From Alistipes sp. (GTDB lineage Bacteria > Bacteroidota > Bacteroidia > Bacteroidales > Rikenellaceae), in contig JAFXHE010000016.1 in assembly GCA_017536555.1 (NCBI GenBank), forward strand, positions 1 through 64,000: a DNA stretch of 64,000 nt, in the 5' to 3' direction. A program made the position numbers and the translations under genes. The notes beneath the pieces were generated by a model. That model saw only the letters and a program-made list of their open reading frames with translations. It was not told the DNA's origin and ran no database searches. The stretch's first letter is position 1. The number at the start of each line of letters is the position of its first letter. Positions 36,243 through 44,469 of the stretch are shown here, piece after piece.

Positions 36243-36647
36243 TTACCCCTCCACAAAGAGCCGCCAGCCCTCGTTGACATCCGCGAGGTTGGCACTCTCG
36301 CCATTCTCTATCTTGGACATCGCCGCCACGATAGCCACCATATCGCGCTCGGAGCGTGTGTCGATGTGGCGGTCAGCATCTATGCCCGAGGCGGCTGCCA
36401 CAAAGCGTATGTAGCCCTCGGTAAAGTTCTCCGACGACGGCGCATAGCGCGCAATCATCGTGCGTATGGTGTTGAGGTTGTAGCGTTTAGCATACGTGTC
36501 AAGGAGCTTGAACATCGCGCGGTAGCCATACGCCATCGAGATAAACTGCTTGAAGCTCTTGTCGCGCGAGGGCTGCACCTCGCCCCGAAAGTGTGTGGGC
36601 GAGATGCGTATGTTCCCAGGGTTACAGTTGTCAAGCCCTCTACTCAT
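36243..36647 (-). CDS. Phage lysozyme-like / virion muramidase-like protein
   Basis: 134 residues. It opens with the NPGNIR signature (NCNPGNIRISP) and continues with a helical pattern RAMFKLLDTYAKRYNLNTIR and APSSENFTEGYIRFVA. This pattern is seen in small phage structural or lysis proteins with a lysozyme-like fold. The likely role is peptidoglycan cleavage at lysis or entry. No signal peptide is seen, so it would rely on the holin. It overlaps the holin gene by 8 bases and ends the cassette. Confidence 0.7.
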   Translation of the reverse strand: MSRGLDNCNPGNIRISPTHFRGEVQPSRDKSFKQFISMAYGYRAMFKLLDTYAKRYNLNTIRTMIARYAPSSENFTEGYIRFVAAASGIDADRHIDTRSERDMVAIVAAMSKIENGESANLADVNEGWRLFVEG

Positions 36648-37065
36648 CCTCCACCTCCTTTCGTATGCGTCGTTTCACAATCTTGCCGAGCCATACGAAG
36701 ATGGGGGCCTCGCTGATGTTTGCGGCATTCTCCAGAAATGACCACAGCTCCACGCCGCAGACAAAGCCTGTGAAGAACTTGGCGAGGTGCAGCTCCACGA
36801 CACCCTCCAGGCAGCACTCCATTATCCACGTCATCACTATCGCCATAGCAGTAAAGCCGAGCTTGAAGAGCGTGCGCCACGCCTTGCGGCTCTCAAACCA
36901 CCACTCCTCGCCCTCGCGCTGTGCTATGGTGCGCGAGGCTATTACACCCGTTATAAAGTCGACGATGATAAATAGCGTTACGGCACCTATGAGTGGGGCT
37001 ACGGGGCAGAGCAGTGCCACAAGTGCGGCACACGCTCCGCTAACGAGTCTGAATAACGCCTCCAT
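36640..37065 (-). CDS. Phage holin (holin-4 type)
   Basis: 141 residues. Two or three membrane spans (about 5-45 and 70-90), with the FITG motif in FIIVDFITGVIASRTI typical of the toxin-secretion/phage-lysis holin family. A charged tail (KRRIRKEVEDE) ends the protein. Holins open the inner membrane for the endolysin. It overlaps the upstream adaptor gene by 26 bases and the lysozyme-like gene by 8, a lysis pair arrangement. Confidence 0.75.
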   Translation of the reverse strand: MEALFRLVSGACAALVALLCPVAPLIGAVTLFIIVDFITGVIASRTIAQREGEEWWFESRKAWRTLFKLGFTAMAIVMTWIMECCLEGVVELHLAKFFTGFVCGVELWSFLENAANISEAPIFVWLGKIVKRRIRKEVEDE

Positions 37066-37510
37066 AGTTGTAGTAGCGGTTTAGTATATTCTTGTAGGGC
37101 TTGTATTCGTCGTATTCGTCGCGGTGGCTGTTTAGGTGGTCGCTCAAGCGACGTGAGAGTGTTGTCGCCTTGTGGTGCAGGATGCTCTGCACGCGCTCAC
37201 GGTAGCTGTTCTCGGCAGCGGTGAGCGTGTGGGGGCTCTCTGTTGCTGCACAGGTCGAGCTGCGCAAGCCGAGCATTGGGCGCACTATGAAGTGTGTCCA
37301 CGCGGCGAGCATAGGTGCCACGTACTCCTCCATAAGTGTAGGGTATGCGCCGTCGTGCAGTGCTTCGAGTAGCGCGTCGCCCACTATCGGGCGCAGGTAG
37401 CTGTACTCCGCCTCGGCAATGTCGGCGGTTGTTATCATCGACGAGTTCACAGGCTCGTCGGGCGAGAAGGCGAGCTCAAGCACCTCCTCGCTGTTGATGA
37501 GTGTCTTCAT
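37040..37510 (-). CDS. Probable phage head-tail adaptor
   Basis: 156 residues, helical, soluble. The opening MKTLINSEEVLELAF and the SYLRPIVGDALLEAL segment resemble small neck proteins that follow the portal or capsid genes in Bacteroidetes phages. Position directly after the portal supports a connector role. There is no enzymatic motif. The family assignment is tentative. Confidence 0.5.
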   Translation of the reverse strand: MKTLINSEEVLELAFSPDEPVNSSMITTADIAEAEYSYLRPIVGDALLEALHDGAYPTLMEEYVAPMLAAWTHFIVRPMLGLRSSTCAATESPHTLTAAENSYRERVQSILHHKATTLSRRLSDHLNSHRDEYDEYKPYKNILNRYYNYGGVIQTR

Positions 37511-37512
37511 TG

Positions 37513-38745
37513 TTAGTCTACTGATTTGATGTTATACTTTGTTATCTGCGACAGGAACTGCTGCTGCTCCACATCCTCGGGGTCATAATCTAAACCATCC
37601 GCCTTGCGTGCCTCCCACACTCGCATATATATAGGCTTCGAGCGTGTCGGCGGGCGGTTGATAATCTCAAGCGATGTGCCGTCCACGCCTAACACCTGAC
37701 CTATGATGGTGCGTATAGGCTCTAACAGCTGCTCCTGCTCGGTTATGATGACGGTGTTTAGTGCCACCTCGTACTCGTGGAGTATGCGCTCTGTGGAGAA
37801 GCCCGAAGAGTAGTCCAGACCGCTGAGCGAGCGAAACCACGAGTGGGCTATCACCAGGTCGGACTCCGACTGCTCGTGCAGCTTATGCCAGTCGCCATCC
37901 GATGCAGCGTCAATGGGTATAAACTGCGAGTTGTCGTTGTCGTTGTGGTCGCGTAGCACGAAGAGCACCTGTCCTGGGTGTCCTGCGAAACGCTCCTCTG
38001 CCATACGCACAATGCGGTCAGCCTCCTCGTCGCTCTCGGTCACGCTGTCGAGCATCATCACACCCGACAGCTGAAACGAGTTGTCTATGCGCGAGATGTT
38101 CCACCTGTCTGTCTTGTAGGCGATGGCGGCGACGTCGAGTCCCGCGATGTATGATGCCACGCCGTAGTGCGAGAACATAGGCTCGTAGTTTTTGTAGTGT
38201 ACGATGCTGCGCAGTGTGCCGTCGTTTTGTGGCTCGAAGAGGGGGTATAGGGGCAGTGTGTGTGCCTCCTCCTTGCGGAATGATGCCCAGTTGTGGTGGA
38301 GTATCACGTGCTTCGAGTCGCGTGCTACGCGGCAGGTCGAGGCGTCGCGGTGGTATAGTGACAGGAAGGTGTTGTTGTCATCTGTTACCACCTCCATAAA
38401 GGCGTTTCCGAACATCGCCTGGTCGAGGGCGAGACGTGCTATGATGCTGCGCAGGGTGTCACCACTGCCATTTGCTCGTGCCACGAATTGCCCGATTAGT
38501 GGTATGCTCTCGTCGTAGGTAAGCCCCTTACCCGCGATGTAGTCCGCTTTGTCGTTTATTATGCGGCGGTGTGCCACCGAGCGACGTGCCATTAGCGAGA
38601 GTGCGAGTGGCAGCATATTGTCGCCACCCCACCTCCATACGCTGTCGCACGTTGTCATCGACCCACCCACCGATACCGAGCCTAACTGTGGCTCGGTGCG
38701 GTTGTCGGTGGTGGTCGCGCGTGTTACAATCCTCTTTTCAGACAT
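37513..38745 (-). CDS. Phage portal protein
   Basis: 410 residues. The pattern is that of portal proteins: an N-terminal region VAHRRIINDKADYIAGKG, then LALDQAMFGNAFMEVV, a central QLSGVMMLDS wing region, and a C-terminal helix with TERILHEYEVALNTVIITEQ and LLEPIRTII. Portals form the dodecameric DNA gate at one capsid vertex. The gene follows the capsid gene by 23 bases. Confidence 0.8.
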   Translation of the reverse strand: MSEKRIVTRATTTDNRTEPQLGSVSVGGSMTTCDSVWRWGGDNMLPLALSLMARRSVAHRRIINDKADYIAGKGLTYDESIPLIGQFVARANGSGDTLRSIIARLALDQAMFGNAFMEVVTDDNNTFLSLYHRDASTCRVARDSKHVILHHNWASFRKEEAHTLPLYPLFEPQNDGTLRSIVHYKNYEPMFSHYGVASYIAGLDVAAIAYKTDRWNISRIDNSFQLSGVMMLDSVTESDEEADRIVRMAEERFAGHPGQVLFVLRDHNDNDNSQFIPIDAASDGDWHKLHEQSESDLVIAHSWFRSLSGLDYSSGFSTERILHEYEVALNTVIITEQEQLLEPIRTIIGQVLGVDGTSLEIINRPPTRSKPIYMRVWEARKADGLDYDPEDVEQQQFLSQITKYNIKSVD

Positions 38746-38768
38746 AGCTTACGCACGTTTAATGGTTA

Positions 38769-39728
38769 CTAATTCTCGCCTCGTGTGATGAGCTTGCCGT
38801 CGATGATGTCGCAGCCTGCGAGGAATGTCGCGCGCTGGCGGTTCTCCATCTCGTCGGCGTTGTACCACATACGCACCTCCGAGCCAGGGTAGTCGCTGGT
38901 GTTTACTGCCAACACGAGGTTGCGGCGATCTGTGAGGAAGATGTACGTTGCCTGCTCTCTTACGGCGATGGGTAGGTGCTGCGTCACGTTCATATCAATA
39001 ACCTGTATGCCGTGGTAGTAGAGCTCGCGGCGACCTGTCGACATATCAAGGTATGCTGCATCCGAGCCGTGCTGGTCGAGCCATAGCTCGTATGCCTCGT
39101 ACAAATCCGACGACACGAAGAATGCGAGATGTCCCTCACCCTTGAGCACCTTTAGCTCGGGGTTTGACTCTGCCCACATACGGTCAAAAATCTTGGTTAT
39201 GTTCTCTGGCGTTACCTCGAACTCCGAGATGTCGCACACGGTGGCCTCTTCGTCGGCGTAGGCGCGTGTGAGCAGACCATCAAATAGCGAGTAGTCGCCG
39301 ACACCTTCCTGACCCACCCACATCATTGTACGCAGGCTCTCGGCGATGGCTCTGCGGAAGAGCTCGGTCTCTGCCGCCTCAAGCTCTGTGCCTGTGAGGT
39401 CTTCGAGGTTGATGTCGCTGTTGCATACGAGGCTCTCGTATACGGTGTTGAAGTAGTCGACAGCCGCAAAGCTCTTCTCCGCCTTGATTTTGTGCATTGT
39501 AATATCCTTCTGCTGGTGGCTGTTGTTCTCCGAGCCGCTCCAGCCGCGGTCATACTCCTGCAGGATGTTGCCCTCCGAGCGGAATACGTGTACGCTTGTC
39601 GGCACGGGCATATTGTAGAGTACGCGGATGCCGATAGCCTCGGCGTTGTTGCCCACGAGCATCGGGCGGAAAAAGATGTTGTCAAGCTCCTTACCTGTGT
39701 AGGTCTTTGAATTCTGAATTGTTCCCAT
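38769..39728 (-). CDS. Phage major capsid protein
   Basis: 319 residues. It is acidic and soluble. The body reads as a capsid protein: SFAAVDYFNTVYESLVCNSD, AIAESLRTMMWVGQEGVGDY, then FFVSSDLYEAYELWL and a C-terminal AVREQATYIFLTDRRNLVLA that fits the capsid A-domain. It lies between a prohead protease and the portal, the expected neighbours. Direct fold evidence is not available here, so the call is by context plus pattern. Confidence 0.72.
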   Translation of the reverse strand: MGTIQNSKTYTGKELDNIFFRPMLVGNNAEAIGIRVLYNMPVPTSVHVFRSEGNILQEYDRGWSGSENNSHQQKDITMHKIKAEKSFAAVDYFNTVYESLVCNSDINLEDLTGTELEAAETELFRRAIAESLRTMMWVGQEGVGDYSLFDGLLTRAYADEEATVCDISEFEVTPENITKIFDRMWAESNPELKVLKGEGHLAFFVSSDLYEAYELWLDQHGSDAAYLDMSTGRRELYYHGIQVIDMNVTQHLPIAVREQATYIFLTDRRNLVLAVNTSDYPGSEVRMWYNADEMENRQRATFLAGCDIIDGKLITRGEN

Positions 39729-39850
39729 AAGTTTTAATTTGTTAGTTTAGTAATTAGTTAATTAATTAGTTAGTTAGGTTGAAAAATTAGGATTGATAAT
39801 TAGAATAAAAAATTAGAATAAAATAGTGAGCGAGGGTTGAAGGTTGGTTG
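39729..39850 (-). repeat. AT-rich repetitive gap upstream of the capsid gene
   Basis: The gap is built of short TTAGTTAATTAG-like and AGAATAAAAAATT-like units, for example GAATAAAAAATTAGAATAAA near 39803-39822. It contains no gene. It is the largest gap inside the cassette and may serve as an internal leader for capsid expression. Confidence 0.5.
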
Positions 39851-40768
39851 TTAGTATCGCTGGCGTATCGTGCGTGCATCCTCATCGTAGGCACTCGAGC
39901 GTGGCGACGTGTGTCCATCCACCAGCATCGGGTCATCCACCTCCTTTAGGGGTGTAGGCTCTACGCTGCGCTGTCGCTCGTCGAGGGTTATGGGCGAGGT
40001 GTGTGGCTCGCTCGTTGCGGGAGTGATATTCTCGGTACGCGGGATGTAGTTTATATCCTCCTCGATACCAATCTTCTCTGCGCTCTCTATGCCCATCGCC
40101 TTGAGCAGCGCGTGTACTCGCTGCATAGCACGTCGTGCGAAGCTGTTTGTGGCGGCTGTGGGCTGTGCCGATGTCGCTGTTGAAGATGCCTCTGTTAGCG
40201 TGTCTGCCAGACCATTGGCAATCACCTCCTCGGGCGCAAGCCAGCGTCCGCGACCACCATTCTCTGCCATCAGTGCGGTTATCTCCTCCACCGAGCGGTT
40301 GGCGCGTGTGGCATATATCTCCGCAAGTCGGCGGTCTGTCTGGCGTAGCATCTCTATCTCCTGTTGCAGCTCGTCGGCATTGCCCTCTGCCGAGCATAGC
40401 GAGTTGTGTATGAGGTAGAGCGATGAGGGTGCTACCTGACGGCACCCTTCAGACGCTGCTTGTGCCACTATTGTTGCTGCCGATGCTGTGTAGCCGTAGC
40501 AGCGTGTGGTGATGTGTGCGCCAGTGTTACGCAGTGCCTCGTATATCAGCAGCGCGTCGTTTACGTCGCCACCTGTCGAGCGTATGTTGACCACGATGCG
40601 GGCGTTGTCGATGTCGGCAATCTGTGACACGCACTCCTTAAATCGCTCGTATGTCGCCACACGGCTCGCGGGGTTCTCAAACTGCCACTCCTCCGAAACA
40701 CCTATCGTCCCTTCGATGTCTATTACGGTGCAGTCTGCCTCGTTTCTGATTTTGATTGTCTGATTCAT
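39851..40768 (-). CDS. ClpP-like prohead protease with C-terminal extension
   Basis: 305 residues. Residues 1-190 follow the ClpP fold: NIRSTGGDVNDALLIYEAL, nucleophile Ser96 in GYTASAATIVAQA, and His121 in SLYLIHNS. The last 110 residues are Ser/Thr/Pro/Glu-rich and probably scaffold-like or self-cleaved. Phage ClpP-like enzymes trim scaffold and capsid during head maturation. It lies just upstream of the capsid gene in transcription order. Confidence 0.85.
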   Translation of the reverse strand: MNQTIKIRNEADCTVIDIEGTIGVSEEWQFENPASRVATYERFKECVSQIADIDNARIVVNIRSTGGDVNDALLIYEALRNTGAHITTRCYGYTASAATIVAQAASEGCRQVAPSSLYLIHNSLCSAEGNADELQQEIEMLRQTDRRLAEIYATRANRSVEEITALMAENGGRGRWLAPEEVIANGLADTLTEASSTATSAQPTAATNSFARRAMQRVHALLKAMGIESAEKIGIEEDINYIPRTENITPATSEPHTSPITLDERQRSVEPTPLKEVDDPMLVDGHTSPRSSAYDEDARTIRQRY

Positions 40769-40826
40769 TCTCTTTGTTCTCTGTTTTTAGGTTGTTGTTA
40801 CTTCTTTTTTGGTGTTGTACAGTTAG

Positions 40827-43151
40827 TTAGTCGTTCAGCGTGCGCCAGAAGCTGCACGTCGCCGTCTGGCTCTCGGGGTCGTATTCCGCTATTCGCTCCA
40901 GACGGAAGAGCGAGCTGTTTGCCCCTACGCGCAGTCTGAAGCGTGAGCGTATCGTCGCCCTGTCGCTTCGTGGGTCAAAGAGCGCGGCATACTCTACGGG
41001 TGTCAGGCGCAGACGACATACGAGCCTCTCGCGTTGCGACCTCTCGGCGTGCTCCGTGTCGTGGTAGTGGTGCAGACCACGACATCCGTCACGATCCTCG
41101 AAGCATAGCGTCGCCTCGCTGTCGCTGTCGTGAAACAGTGCCAGCGGGTAGCACGGCGTGGTTGTCGTCGCTGCCCAGTGCTCTGTTGCGGGCAGGGGCT
41201 TGAGACCCTCGTATAGCACTATGCGTGGCTCAACATAGTCGTTTGTGGCAATCGTGTCGCGGTCGCCCACCGTGAGCACCTTTGCCGAGGGAGCCTGTGC
41301 GATGTATCCCGCAAGCGAGGCTACGGGGGCAAAGAGTGGGTTTGTGCGACTCTCTGTGCCCTGCTTTGCGCCATAGCTCGTCGTGTGGTAGCTCCACTCG
41401 CCAACAGGGGTGCCATCCTCGGCTATGCGGCTCAACACGCCGTCGGCAGCCTGATATTTGAGCGTCGTGGTCTCGAAACACTCTGTCACACGCTCTTCGA
41501 GTGAGGTGTTGTCGTCGTCGAGCTGCTTTGTGCGCCAGTCTACAATGTCGTCCCTGAAGAAGTCGTCGTATGGCTCTATTATGAGCCTCTGCGAGGGCTT
41601 GTGCGAGTATATGCGCAGGTTGAACATCTGTGCTATCGCCTCGAGTAGCTGCGCCTGTGTGAATGGGTGGTTTGCCACATCCTTGAACTCCACCCACTCG
41701 CCATATCCTGCCACGCCGCCAAATACGGGTGTTACGCTGCAGCCGCTGTGTAGCGTGAGCCGCTGTCCTGGCTCGGCACCCTCGAATATCAGCTCGTCGA
41801 AGCGTTCAGGCGATGTTGGCGTGAGGAGCTTGTATGGCGAGCGCACATCCACCTCTACGGTGATGCTGCCCGAGGTCTCCACATAGTCGTTGTATATCGC
41901 CCAGTCGCCCTCAAAGGGTGTGTACGCGCCCTCGTCGCCAGCTCTTACGTAGAGCGTCAGTGGCTCGGTTACGTTTTCCTGTGCCACAAAGCTGTGGGTG
42001 TCGCCCGCGAAGCGTGTATGCCCAACTAACATATAGCCGTTACCCTCCGTGTGGTCGAATACCACCACCTTGTAGGCGTAGCCCTCGGTGAGGTTGTCGC
42101 GGCAATCCTTGTGCGGGTTGTTCAGCACGATTTGTACGGCGCAGTCGCCTGCGAGCGATATCGTGTCAAAGCCCCTCAACTGTCGGCTCGATGCGAGGCG
42201 ATACTCCGTGGTGTAGCGTATGTGGTAGTCAAAGGCGGTGCTTATCTCGCGTGTCGGCGTGAAGCGTATGCCACTCTCATCGGCACTGAAGCAGCCACCA
42301 TTGTTGTAGGCTCCCGTCAGGCGGTTGCCATCCTCGTCCACAGCATTGGGGTCGGCAGTGTCGACGATGCTGCCGATGTTTGAGGCGAAGATGGGCAGTG
42401 CTGCGTAGATGCGTCCGCTGCTGTCTGCCGTGTCGCTTGTCGTCGTCGTGCGATACGCCTTGAAGCCCATTGTGGCGTAGGCTGCGTCGCTCTCTACGTG
42501 TGGGTATGCGCCACTGAACATCAGCTTGCGGTATAGCTCGCTCTGCATAAAGCTGCTGTCGAGGGTGTAGCCGCTCTCGGCGAGCATCGCCTCAACCACT
42601 GCGCGCACCGCGATAAAGGGGTGGTAGTTGTGCGGCATTATGGGTGTCTGGGGCGTGTACATACCGCCGTCGCTCGGTGTGGGATACCTGTCGCGCCATA
42701 GCGGCAGGTAGCGTACATTCGCCTCGTCGTGCCACGTGCGTTCAATGTCGCCCAGCGTCATACAGCAGCTATGTTCTACCGTACTCTCGTCGAGGCGTGT
42801 TGTCGCAGCGCGCTTCGCCCACTCCTCGCCACCTGTGCGCAGCAGCAGCTTGAACTGCTTGGTGTTACCACTCTGCCTAACGCCTATGAGTGTCGCCATA
42901 CCCTCAAAGAGTGTTACGCCGTCGGCTGTGAGCGTGGCACGGTGGTAGCTGTCGTTGAATCTCTCGGCGTGGTAGATGTCATCGGCAAAGCGCATCAGTC
43001 GCTCCACCTCGGGTGTTGCTGCCACCTCCACCGTCATAGTGTCGCCCTCGCGCCACGCCTCCACACTTGCGAGCCTCTTGCTGTCGTAGCTCGGTAGGGT
43101 GACCTTGCCAACTAAAGGGCACTCTACGCCGTCAATCTTTAGACGTGTCAT
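40827..43151 (-). CDS. Large phage tail/baseplate-type structural protein
   Basis: 774 residues, largest of the cassette. The middle part has a pattern I associate with Bacteroidetes phage tail proteins (NYHPFIAVRAVVEAMLAES with GYTLDSSFMQSELYRKLMF). Beta-rich stretches follow. A segment QAQLLEAIAQMFNLRIYSHK with QRLIIEPYDDFF resembles baseplate hub-like domains. There is no signal peptide and no enzyme motif. Its start overlaps the stop of the upstream gene (ATGA type), so the two are coupled. Confidence 0.55.
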   Translation of the reverse strand: MTRLKIDGVECPLVGKVTLPSYDSKRLASVEAWREGDTMTVEVAATPEVERLMRFADDIYHAERFNDSYHRATLTADGVTLFEGMATLIGVRQSGNTKQFKLLLRTGGEEWAKRAATTRLDESTVEHSCCMTLGDIERTWHDEANVRYLPLWRDRYPTPSDGGMYTPQTPIMPHNYHPFIAVRAVVEAMLAESGYTLDSSFMQSELYRKLMFSGAYPHVESDAAYATMGFKAYRTTTTSDTADSSGRIYAALPIFASNIGSIVDTADPNAVDEDGNRLTGAYNNGGCFSADESGIRFTPTREISTAFDYHIRYTTEYRLASSRQLRGFDTISLAGDCAVQIVLNNPHKDCRDNLTEGYAYKVVVFDHTEGNGYMLVGHTRFAGDTHSFVAQENVTEPLTLYVRAGDEGAYTPFEGDWAIYNDYVETSGSITVEVDVRSPYKLLTPTSPERFDELIFEGAEPGQRLTLHSGCSVTPVFGGVAGYGEWVEFKDVANHPFTQAQLLEAIAQMFNLRIYSHKPSQRLIIEPYDDFFRDDIVDWRTKQLDDDNTSLEERVTECFETTTLKYQAADGVLSRIAEDGTPVGEWSYHTTSYGAKQGTESRTNPLFAPVASLAGYIAQAPSAKVLTVGDRDTIATNDYVEPRIVLYEGLKPLPATEHWAATTTTPCYPLALFHDSDSEATLCFEDRDGCRGLHHYHDTEHAERSQRERLVCRLRLTPVEYAALFDPRSDRATIRSRFRLRVGANSSLFRLERIAEYDPESQTATCSFWRTLND

Positions 43152-44116
43152 CTTCCACCTCCCTTCACCTTGTCGCGCACGACTACCCTCATCTGGCGCA
43201 GCTTGCCGTGGCTGTCATACTCCATCTTGCGCGTTAGAAGCTCCACCTGCTGCGGTGTGCTCCCCACAACCTCGTACACCTCCTCGGAGTGTATCAGCTC
43301 TGTGAGGCGTGCCATCTCCTTGTCACCGTCATAGCCCGATGCAAGCAGCGTCTCACGATATGCCTCGCGCAGGGTGTTGTGCTTGTGGTTGCCGCACTCC
43401 ACCGTTGCTACATCTGCTACGAGGCGTTGCGGCAGCGATGTCGGAAAGGTGTAGCTCTCGTAGCCGCCTTTGCTGTTGAGCCATATTAGGCGGCGTGACG
43501 AGGTGTTGCGTGCCACTACCGCGTAGTTGAGGTGGCAGACTATCGTCTTGTCGCACCATACAACCACCTCCACGCGCTCTATGCCTCGCTCAAGGTCGGT
43601 TATGGGCACTATCAGCTCTGCGGGCTTGCCCTGTGTATCGTAGCTTATGCGATTGGCGTCAGTGTGGTCGGCATAGACCTTGTTTAGCTGACACGCCACA
43701 TCGTGCTTGGCATATAGCGTCAGGTGGAGGGTGTCGCCTGCCGATATTGTAGCGCGTGTTGGCGGGCTGCTCAACGGTGCGAAGAAGGTGGTATCTATCG
43801 CCGTGCGAAAGTAGAACTGCTCTACTGACGAAACCTCTCCAGAGCTTACCACGATGCAGGCCGTCGAGGGTGATGCCACAATCTTCATCGTATCTGCCAT
43901 CTGCGGTGTTAGCGTTGCCACCTGTCGCACGTATGGTGCGATGTCAAAGCTGCCGCGCGTGACGCCCGAGAGTCGCACCGTGCCGAGTGTCATATTGCGC
44001 ATCGTGTCGAAGATGGTAAACTCCACGTCGGTTGGAGACGCAAGCTCGGTGTTGAAGCTGTAGATTAGTGGGTCGCGCCAGGAGGCTCCGTTTTTTGGTA
44101 ATGTTGTAAACTTCAT
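43148..44116 (-). CDS. Phage tail-associated protein, first gene of the cassette
   Basis: 322 residues from ATG 44116 (MKFTTLPKNGASW). An upstream in-frame start would add an unconserved 32 residues. It is predicted beta-rich, with DVEFTIFDTMRNMTLGTVRL and RLIWLNSKGGYESYTFPT. The latter resembles a motif in tail proteins that accompany the large tail protein in Bacteroidetes prophages; this is a recollection, not a search result. It is followed at once by the 774-residue gene. Confidence 0.5.
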   Translation of the reverse strand: MKFTTLPKNGASWRDPLIYSFNTELASPTDVEFTIFDTMRNMTLGTVRLSGVTRGSFDIAPYVRQVATLTPQMADTMKIVASPSTACIVVSSGEVSSVEQFYFRTAIDTTFFAPLSSPPTRATISAGDTLHLTLYAKHDVACQLNKVYADHTDANRISYDTQGKPAELIVPITDLERGIERVEVVVWCDKTIVCHLNYAVVARNTSSRRLIWLNSKGGYESYTFPTSLPQRLVADVATVECGNHKHNTLREAYRETLLASGYDGDKEMARLTELIHSEEVYEVVGSTPQQVELLTRKMEYDSHGKLRQMRVVVRDKVKGGGR

Positions 44117-44363
44117 TGTTAAATAATTTAAGTGTTTAAGGCAGCCTCCAAAGTGGTGGCTGATGCGCCCCCTTTTGCTGCAGTCATCAGAGGGTCGTCG
44201 GCTTGTTAACAATATTGTTGAGTGTTTATTTAGACCTGTTTATAGGTCGCTTAAAGCATTTGAATAACAACCATATAACATTGTTGATAACACTTGCTGT
44301 GTGAGTGTTGAAAGTGTTGATAATGCTATTTTGGTTGGTTGCTTTTGTTTGTGAATCACAGTG
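44117..44363. other. Leader region of the phage-like cassette
   Basis: About 250 bases without a gene between the cassette promoter and its first start codon. It contains several near-palindromic AT-rich words such as TTAACAATATTGTTGA (44207-44222), GACCTGTTTATAGGTC (44234-44249) and repeated GTTGATAA. These could be operator or replication-like sites; none is assigned. Confidence 0.4.
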
Positions 44364-44395
44364 CAAATATACAACATAAAAAAGCCTTTGTCAAG
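44364..44395 (-). promoter_or_regulatory. Promoter of the phage-like cassette
   Basis: On the minus strand TATATTTG (44371-44364), with CTTG (44395-44392) 20 bases upstream. It is a host-type housekeeping pattern, so the cassette should be transcribable without a phage activator. Confidence 0.6.
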
Positions 44396-44469
44396 AGCAA
44401 AAGTTAAATTTTTGATATTAATTTTTTATCCCGAAGTCAATTTATTTAACACTCATCGTGTTACGAGAA

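What the first reader, a model, noticed from the sequence alone, without database searches (positions are those of the whole stretch)
36243..44116. Intact phage head-and-lysis cassette without packaging, integration or replication genes
Seen: eight open, tightly spaced genes on one strand with a host-type promoter. They encode two tail-like proteins, a ClpP-like prohead protease with Ser96/His121, a capsid protein candidate, portal, adaptor candidate, holin and lysozyme-like protein. No terminase, integrase, tape measure or repressor is seen, and no border repeats. The order (tail genes first, then protease, capsid, portal) is not the usual terminase-portal-protease-capsid order. Inference: rather than random decay, this may be a domesticated particle system (gene-transfer-agent-like, a capsid-bearing satellite, or a lysis-released nanocompartment), or a fragment using terminase and tails encoded elsewhere.
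Basis: partly seen in the sequence, partly recalled or inferred. Interest (0 to 1): 0.72.

Follow-up and report, generated by a model that had tools for sequence, protein, structure and literature searches.

The report
Two-part domesticated phage packaging system
An intact set of phage head and lysis genes in a gut bacterium turns out to be an old, inherited part of almost its whole bacterial family, with its DNA-packaging motor kept at a separate place in the chromosome, so it probably makes virus-like particles that carry the bacterium's own DNA.

Summary
In detail: eight intact, tightly spaced genes behind one promoter. 'No terminase' is true of the block, not of the genome. A complete related prophage in a sister species gave a TerL query, which found a TerL with intact motifs at another locus of the own genome, beside an XRE-S24 (LexA/CI-type) repressor and a 96-aa protein. 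Portal and TerL each match in 181 of 200 family genomes (175 both, 13 neither), mostly once. Gene trees of the two loci broadly agree with each other and with pckA. Catalytic residues are invariant; dN/dS is below 1 in every gene. In the window's clade the loci share a rare promoter form; in four sister genomes they lie about 2-6 kb apart. The cassette has no tape measure or integrase; no canonical TerS was found. Best explanation: a family-wide, vertically inherited, gene-transfer-agent-like particle system (relatives labelled Alistipes/Rikenellaceae), probably repressor-controlled, perhaps short-tailed. Outside the genus the lysozyme gene was not recognised. My literature searches showed no GTA described in this family or phylum.

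The parts
43148..44116 (-). P8, 322 aa, first cassette gene, probable tail/neck or adhesion protein (fast evolving; possible TTG start at 44212)
   Evidence: homologue of the 307-aa gene of prophage G006:C31; median dN/dS 0.62
40827..43151 (-). P7, 774 aa, probable tail/baseplate protein
   Evidence: homologue of the 884-aa prophage gene just before the tape-measure candidate; 21 sequences aligned
39851..40768 (-). P6, ClpP-type head maturation protease, Ser96/His121/Asp189
   Evidence: residues 41 of 41
38769..39728 (-). P5, 319 aa, major capsid protein candidate
   Evidence: phrog_11320 4e-12, function unknown; prophage homologue matches phrog_1623 virion structural protein; position
37513..38745 (-). 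P4, 410 aa, portal
   Evidence: match in 181 of 200 family genomes
37040..37510 (-). P3, 156 aa, head-tail adaptor candidate (DUF6712-like)
   Evidence: 3e-4, below cut-off; position after portal
36640..37065 (-). P2, 141 aa, holin (Phage_holin_4_1)
   Evidence: 141 aa in 21 of 21 near relatives
36243..36647 (-). P1, 134 aa, endolysin/lysozyme-like protein with NPGNIR motif
   Evidence: phrog_873 4e-41; motif 45 of 45; not recognised in 18 loci of other genera
44364..44394 (-). cassette promoter TTGACA-N-TATATTTG, with an AAAAATTTAAC box just upstream (44403-44413)
   Evidence: conserved in the genus; the only TTGACA-type promoter in the window; same form before terL in the own genome
44117..44363 (-). 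5' leader with an array of TTATNAACA-type direct repeats, many spacings near multiples of 11 bp; core sites 44237-44322
   Evidence: 103 TNAACA sites in 22 leaders against 15.7 +/- 3.5 in shuffles; in the own genome the three-site pattern hits only here

Best explanation
The block is the structural and lysis locus of an ancient, vertically inherited, phage-derived particle system that works like a gene transfer agent. Its packaging locus (S24-type repressor, 96-aa protein, TerL) lies at an unlinked site (G000:C2 121391-124014). Proposed cycle, inferred: DNA damage or another signal leads to self-cleavage of the repressor; the two loci fire from like promoters; protease, capsid protein and portal build a procapsid; TerL, without a canonical TerS, packs host DNA; adaptor, P8 and P7 close the particle with a short or no tail (the cassette has no tape-measure gene); holin and lysozyme-like protein release it by lysis. 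Shown: gene content, conservation, co-inheritance of unlinked loci, selection, shared promoter form in the window's clade. Inferred: particle formation, DNA content, transfer, SOS control.
For: TerL from the complete prophage G006:C31 finds a TerL in 58 of 61 genus genomes, one match in 54 of the 58; in the own genome at G000:C2. Own TerL: phrog_38 3e-94, NCBIfam TIGR01630 above cut-off, Pfam Terminase_6N and RNaseH-like; Walker A, Walker B and nuclease acids unchanged in 43 of 43 distinct sequences. The repressor has HTH and Peptidase_S24, with Ser, Lys and Ala-Gly unchanged 43 of 43. Co-occurrence in 200 family genomes: 175 both, 6 TerL only, 6 portal only, 13 neither (Fisher 7e-12, not corrected for kinship or incomplete MAGs). 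Order: all eight genes found in 31 of 42 loci, five of the other 11 cut by contig ends; portal, capsid and adaptor in 20 of 20 further family loci, 18 from other genera (L285 and L286 are of the own genus). Trees of 19 genomes: portal-TerL Mantel r 0.72, portal-pckA 0.43, TerL-pckA 0.62, at most 2 of 2000 permutations as high. Median dN/dS: repressor 0.10, TerL 0.16, portal 0.19. TerL locus and cassette lie about 2.4 kb (G195), 4 kb (G137, G170) and 6 kb (G162) apart in sister genomes picked for nearness. The TTGACA-type promoter gives 46 hits in 1.22 Mb: 37 at cassette starts, 5 at terL starts, 4 elsewhere (sorted by eye).
Against: No particle, expression or packaged-DNA data. No canonical TerS (Terminase_2 in 1 of 61 genus genomes, the prophage only); no tail-tube gene identified, no tape measure in the cassette and its search elsewhere uninformative; neck-like gene not found in the own genome. 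In 18 loci of other genera the lysozyme-like gene was recognised in none and the holin in 8, and the protease matched only weakly in four. P8 and adaptor evolve fast (dN/dS medians 0.62, 0.45). Shared tree splits are only 7-12 of 16, and the place of G000 within its clade differs between trees. The leader array was not seen at terL loci, and the TTGACA promoter at terL in only 5 of 19 scanned, all of the window's clade, so joint control is suggested by sequence only there. Portal has an internal stop in two genomes (G043, G052). In many sister genomes the loci are far apart (e.g. G118 about 67 kb, G108 about 216 kb). The gut VLP study that I read in part (PMC12946183) names other families for 23 of 25 GTA-like events and does not name Rikenellaceae among them in the parts seen.
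Confidence: 0.72

Rival explanations
1. A PBSX-like or killer-particle system: particles pack host DNA or nothing and act by killing relatives; DNA delivery is lost and the selected trait is competition.
For: No tape measure in the cassette; P8 diversifies fast, as receptor-binding parts do; holin and lysozyme-like gene kept in the genus; portal matches the PBSX portal model, below its cut-off.
Against: TerL with intact ATPase and nuclease motifs is kept as widely as the portal, though PBSX also packs DNA (recalled); comEC lies directly downstream in several lineages.
Confidence: 0.15
2. A capsid device without DNA: a lysis-released nanocompartment or protein-delivery shell; TerL is kept for an unrelated use.
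For: No terminase in the cassette; the two loci are unlinked in the own genome.
Against: Co-occurrence and co-inheritance with TerL, near linkage in some sister genomes, like promoters in the window's clade. No cargo gene seen.
Confidence: 0.06
3. A phage satellite or helper-dependent element that uses terminase and tails of co-resident phages.
For: Incomplete structural set; G006 has a related complete prophage, and a second TerL copy occurs also in G014 and G053.
Against: No integrase match in the window and no repeats at the borders; near-universal, mostly single copy, tree-congruent.
Confidence: 0.04
4. An ordinary prophage remnant, or many independent ones.
For: Lacks integrase, replication genes, TerS, tape measure.
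Against: Intact frames in nearly all relatives, dN/dS below 1 for all genes, family-wide presence, conserved promoter and leader.
Confidence: 0.03

Closest known systems
FpGTA of Faecalibacterium (Borodovich et al. 2026, PMC12946183; outline, passages and section 9 seen)
   Same: Gut commensal; GTA-like genes split over two operons; lysis genes apart from terL; TerS without evident DNA-binding domain (here none found); no identifiable tail on its particles
   Different: Other phylum. There portal and capsid are with terL, and lysis genes are with baseplate and fibre genes; here portal, capsid, tail-like and lysis genes are together and terL is with an S24 repressor. FpGTA particles and their DNA were shown; here not.
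RcGTA of Rhodobacter and relatives
   Same: Vertically inherited phage head genes, several loci, lysis release (recalled); recipients use ComEC, ComF and DprA (PMC10883770, passages)
   Different: RcGTA keeps tape measure and tail genes in one large cluster and has other regulators (recalled); no sequence relation found except a chance-level portal match (E 0.086)
Prophage G006:C31 ~18.9-54.8 kb
   Same: Same order P8-P7-protease-capsid-portal-adaptor-holin; portal 49% and TerL 60% identical to the own genome's
   Different: Has integrase-like gene, TerS, tape-measure candidate and further genes after the holin; this copy seen in one genome
Bacteroides fragilis phages B40-8 / B124-14
   Same: TerL about 47% identical over 97%
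   Different: Free phages; no Bacteroides phage is named among the 86 records matched by the portal

Membership tests
Gene transfer agent | Phage-derived head, portal and terminase genes | tested here: met
   capsid call partly by position
Gene transfer agent | Fixed and vertically inherited in a host lineage, under purifying selection | tested here: met
   match in 181 of 200 family genomes for each locus
Gene transfer agent | No integration or replication genes with it; genes spread over the chromosome | tested here: met
   the prophage integrase model gave one weak hit (4e-8) on another contig in the sampled part of the own genome
Gene transfer agent | Particles package random host DNA | not testable with these tools
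   no particle data; two short scaffolds with cassette and host genes are in a faecal phage record set, weak and biased
Gene transfer agent | Delivery of DNA to recipients and recombination | not testable with these tools
   comEC directly downstream in 11 of 58 rows is only circumstantial
Gene transfer agent | Tail or delivery apparatus | tested here: inconclusive
   P7, P8, adaptor; neck-like gene in 23 of 61 genus genomes, not in own; tape measure not in cassette; phrog_167 search uninformative
Intact temperate prophage | Integrase, TerS, tape measure and replication genes in one block | tested here: not met
Capsid-bearing satellite (PICI type) | Integrase at the element and sporadic presence (features recalled) | tested here: not met

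The most novel reading that the evidence does not exclude
The first gene transfer agent of the Bacteroidota: an ancient, family-wide system in Alistipes and relatives, with the packaging motor under an SOS-type repressor at one locus and a tape-measure-free head-plus-lysis operon at another, that moves host DNA between gut bacteria.
Probability: 0.55. Interest if true: 0.92.

Novelty: new variant of a known kind. Interest (0 to 1): 0.83.

Why it matters
GTA gene sets are known from few lineages, and the 2026 gut study (PMC12946183, passages) calls FpGTA the first such element found in the human gut microbiome. A system matched in 181 of 200 genomes of one gut family would make DNA exchange by domesticated particles a standing trait of a common gut lineage, open to direct test in culturable Alistipes. 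It would also show how a phage is pared down in steps: near-linked loci in some sister genomes, separation in others, a cassette without tape measure. It may explain why a prophage survey reports incomplete fragments in nearly all strains of some Alistipes species (PMC10841027, passages), and it warns that short viral-database contigs with these genes can be pieces of host chromosome.

Tried and rejected
Ordinary remnant: rejected. phrog_2 TerL search: strong hits in few genomes and a weak hit of ~330-aa frames in most, which I took for a RuvB-like ATPase (a guess from length, not tested); it misled at first, the prophage TerL solved it. PF03354 in the own genome: none. Tape measure: a 60-aa N-terminal query matched only the prophage genome (too short to exclude others); phrog_167 hit 61 of 61 genomes and 14 of 14 controls, mostly at profile positions ~1175-1325, which I take for its peptidase part (recalled), so uninformative. 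PDB profile searches of capsid, P7 and portal: nothing significant; own TerL matched a phage terminase at 0.001. P8, adaptor and the 96-aa protein were not searched there. Array as a regulon probe: hits in 4 of 61 genomes; of 6 rows 3 are at a cassette leader (own, and two overlapping in G011) and 3 elsewhere, while the backwards control pattern gave 4 hits, so outside the cassette it is at chance level; strict gaps miss most relatives. G153 (L294) was fetched but not annotated.

Full report
What is there. The eight genes read as described, at gaps from -26 to 122 bp. Transcription order is P8 (322 aa), P7 (774 aa), ClpP-type protease, capsid candidate, portal, adaptor, holin, lysozyme-like. 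Family support is firm for protease, holin and lysozyme-like protein, good for portal, weak for adaptor and capsid, absent for P7 and P8. The window lies in a 1.63-Mb draft genome, 79% complete, 21 contigs. The 21 named relatives found by the portal are MAGs labelled 'Alistipes sp.' or 'Rikenellaceae bacterium', those with a stated host from cattle, buffalo, yak, sheep and deer; I use that label for the host.

How widespread. The portal is found in 58 of 60 other genomes of the genus (not in G016, G036), with one match in 56 of these; G006 has a second copy in a prophage and G009 two pieces at contig ends. In 40 genomes of other families of the order there is one match (G079, 25% identity). 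In the family it is found in 181 of 200 genomes, own genome included, and 17 of 22 genera; of genomes at least 90% complete and at most 5% contaminated, in 105 of 109. By contrast the phage collection gave 86 records for the portal, 85 of them below 60% identity (those listed 21-24%) and one faecal fragment at 72% over 22% of the query, and one faecal fragment at 46% for the capsid. The viral-contig scan with the portal alignment gave 9 loci, 7 of them short contigs (4-13 kb) at 60-72% identity; L052, L235 and L238 are over 99.9% identical to host-genome loci over 4-7 kb, and L237 is 98% over 9 kb.

Order and site. Among 42 loci compared (L031-L072), all eight genes were recognised in 31; of the other 11, five are cut by contig ends, four lack one or two recognisable genes, one is the distant G079 hit and one is a complete prophage. 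In the window's clade the cassette is divergent to prfA; in other clades it lies between mqnA/corA and comEC/methyltransferase genes, or elsewhere. pckA, the window's neighbour, is on other contigs or many kb away in the relatives checked, except that in L115 it follows beyond comEC. In 20 more family loci, 18 from other genera, portal, capsid and adaptor are present in all; a neck-like gene precedes P8 in 14 and a ~171-aa gene lies before the portal in 13. Against a uniform lysis module: in the 18 loci of other genera the lysozyme-like gene is recognised in none and the holin in 8, and in four loci the protease matches only weakly.

The missing terminase. Genome G006 holds, besides the cassette, a complete-looking related prophage with integrase-like gene, TerS (PF03592, 5e-22), TerL, P8-like, P7-like, an 893-aa tape-measure candidate (phrog_167, 6e-6 on its first 661 aa), protease, capsid, portal, adaptor and holin in that order. 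So the unusual order is the order of this phage type. Its TerL found a TerL in 58 of 61 genus genomes (not in G032, G043, G044), one match in 54; two matches in G006, G014, G053 (second copies) and G008 (two pieces); in the own genome at G000:C2:122608-123972. In the family the own TerL is found in 181 of 200 genomes, 18 of 22 genera, and 105 of 109 of the better ones. Crossing the two lists: both 175, TerL only 6 (G146, G207, G114, G130, G166, G180), portal only 6 (G212, G043, G032, G247, G259, G173), neither 13; Fisher p 7e-12. Incomplete MAGs and kinship inflate this; genera g50 (2 genomes) and g52 (4 genomes) lack both throughout.

The packaging locus. It is a divergent trio: a 226-aa repressor with XRE HTH and Peptidase_S24, a 96-aa protein without any family match in Pfam, PHROGs or NCBIfam, and TerL. 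Repressor and TerL were found in 18 of 18 further genus loci, the 96-aa protein in 15 of 18 by tblastn. Ser and Lys of the S24 domain and an Ala-Gly pair are unchanged in 43 of 43 distinct repressor sequences, as are Walker A Lys, Walker B Asp-Asp and nuclease Asp/Glu of TerL (that these are the catalytic residues is recalled). A canonical TerS of the Terminase_2 family was found in 1 of 61 genus genomes, in the prophage.

One system. In four sister genomes, picked because the hit lists placed both genes close together, the trio lies near the cassette: G195 with 2.4 kb between (one host gene there), G137 about 4 kb from the neck gene, G170 about 4 kb from the P8 frame, G162 about 6 kb from the adaptor. 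In others they are far apart on one contig (G118 about 67 kb, G145 about 73 kb, G108 about 216 kb). In 19 genomes, distances of portal, capsid, P7, TerL, repressor and pckA are all correlated (r 0.43-0.85; at most 2 of 2000 permutations reach it), and the main clades recur, though only 7-12 of 16 splits are shared (G038 was dropped because P7 was not covered). Pairwise dN/dS medians at dS 0.05-1.2: repressor 0.10, TerL 0.16, portal 0.19, holin 0.24, protease 0.26, lysozyme-like 0.27, capsid 0.27, P7 0.29, 96-aa 0.41, adaptor 0.45, P8 0.62; prfA control 0.024; no pair reached 1. Some loci in that set are the same genome from two collections, and pairs share lineages.

Regulation. A promoter of the form TTGACA-N15-19-TAnnTTTG occurs 46 times in 1,222,659 bases of fetched loci: by my reading 37 at cassette starts (in L059 about 2 kb upstream), 5 at terL starts, all in the window's clade and 5 of 19 terL loci scanned, 4 elsewhere. 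The loci were chosen because they hold the genes, so the useful figure is the 4 elsewhere. In 459,783 bases of the own genome it occurs 5 times: cassette, terL, an AAA_25 ATPase gene at G000:C16 about 65 kb, and two others. Between promoter and P8 lies a leader with TTATNAACA-type direct repeats: 103 TNAACA sites in 22 leaders against 15.7 +/- 3.5 in shuffles, many spacings near multiples of 11 bp. A cluster of three TATNAACA sites within 200 bp was seen in the window only there, and in 6 of 47 other loci, each time at the start of the cassette; in none of the terL loci. Genome-wide the strict three-site pattern is at chance level outside cassettes. Its binding protein is unknown.

Host DNA in particle samples. 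Two records from Mexican faecal samples (MT838736, MT838805) hold cassette genes beside host genes mqnA, or comEC and a methyltransferase. They may stem from the VLP study PMC8361208 (search listing and passages seen; no MT8 accession in its text). If only phage-like scaffolds were deposited, this is a hint at most. A pig-virome paper lists a 13-kb virome contig with best BLASTn hit Alistipes that was not called phage (PMC9723715, passages).

Literature. Searches for gene transfer agent(s) with Alistipes, Bacteroidota, Rikenellaceae and Bacteroidales gave 2, 9, 1 and 13 papers (10 of the 13 listed); related searches gave 0, 0, 1 and 6. No title or abstract start in these listings describes such a system; of these papers I opened only PMC12946183, PMC9723715 and PMC10841027, in part. 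Preprints and most subscription papers are not in that library. PMC12946183 (outline, passages, section 9) describes FpGTA, has no occurrence of Alistipes in its main text, and one of Rikenellaceae, as abundant in total DNA. [quoted passage not shown] PMC10883770 (passages) states that ComEC, ComF and DprA serve uptake of GTA DNA.

Verdict. It works like a GTA in its genes; that it is one needs particles and DNA.

Noticed in passing
G000:C16:64675-65769 (L101:4675-5769, minus), just outside the window: AAA_25 ATPase gene (364 aa) behind a promoter very like the cassette promoter, box included; possible third member of the regulon.
   Followed up: partly
window 44117-44363 and leaders of 21 relatives: Array of TTATNAACA-type direct repeats, many spacings near multiples of 11 bp; near the DnaA-box form (recalled), binding protein unknown.
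   Followed up: partly
L054, L058, L062, L063, L068, L070, L071, L111, L112, L115, L285: comEC (competence DNA channel) lies directly downstream of the cassette in the same direction in several lineages; in L072 and L114 it is near but placed otherwise.
   Followed up: partly
G006:C31 18878-54800 (L096-L099): Complete-looking prophage of the ancestral type in the same genome as a domesticated copy; useful as outgroup.
   Followed up: yes
L295:11514-11987: 157-aa gene without Pfam match between the 98-aa protein and TerL in G162 (genus g49); possible TerS candidate.
   Followed up: no
L052, L235-L240: Short IMG/VR 'viral' contigs that carry this cassette; L052, L235 and L238 match host-genome loci at over 99.9% identity over 4-7 kb, so they look like mislabelled host DNA.
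   Followed up: partly
L093, L094: Faecal phage-record scaffolds that join cassette genes to host genes mqnA or comEC.
   Followed up: partly
G043:C26, G052:C57: Portal with one internal stop codon in these two genomes: local decay or assembly error.
   Followed up: no
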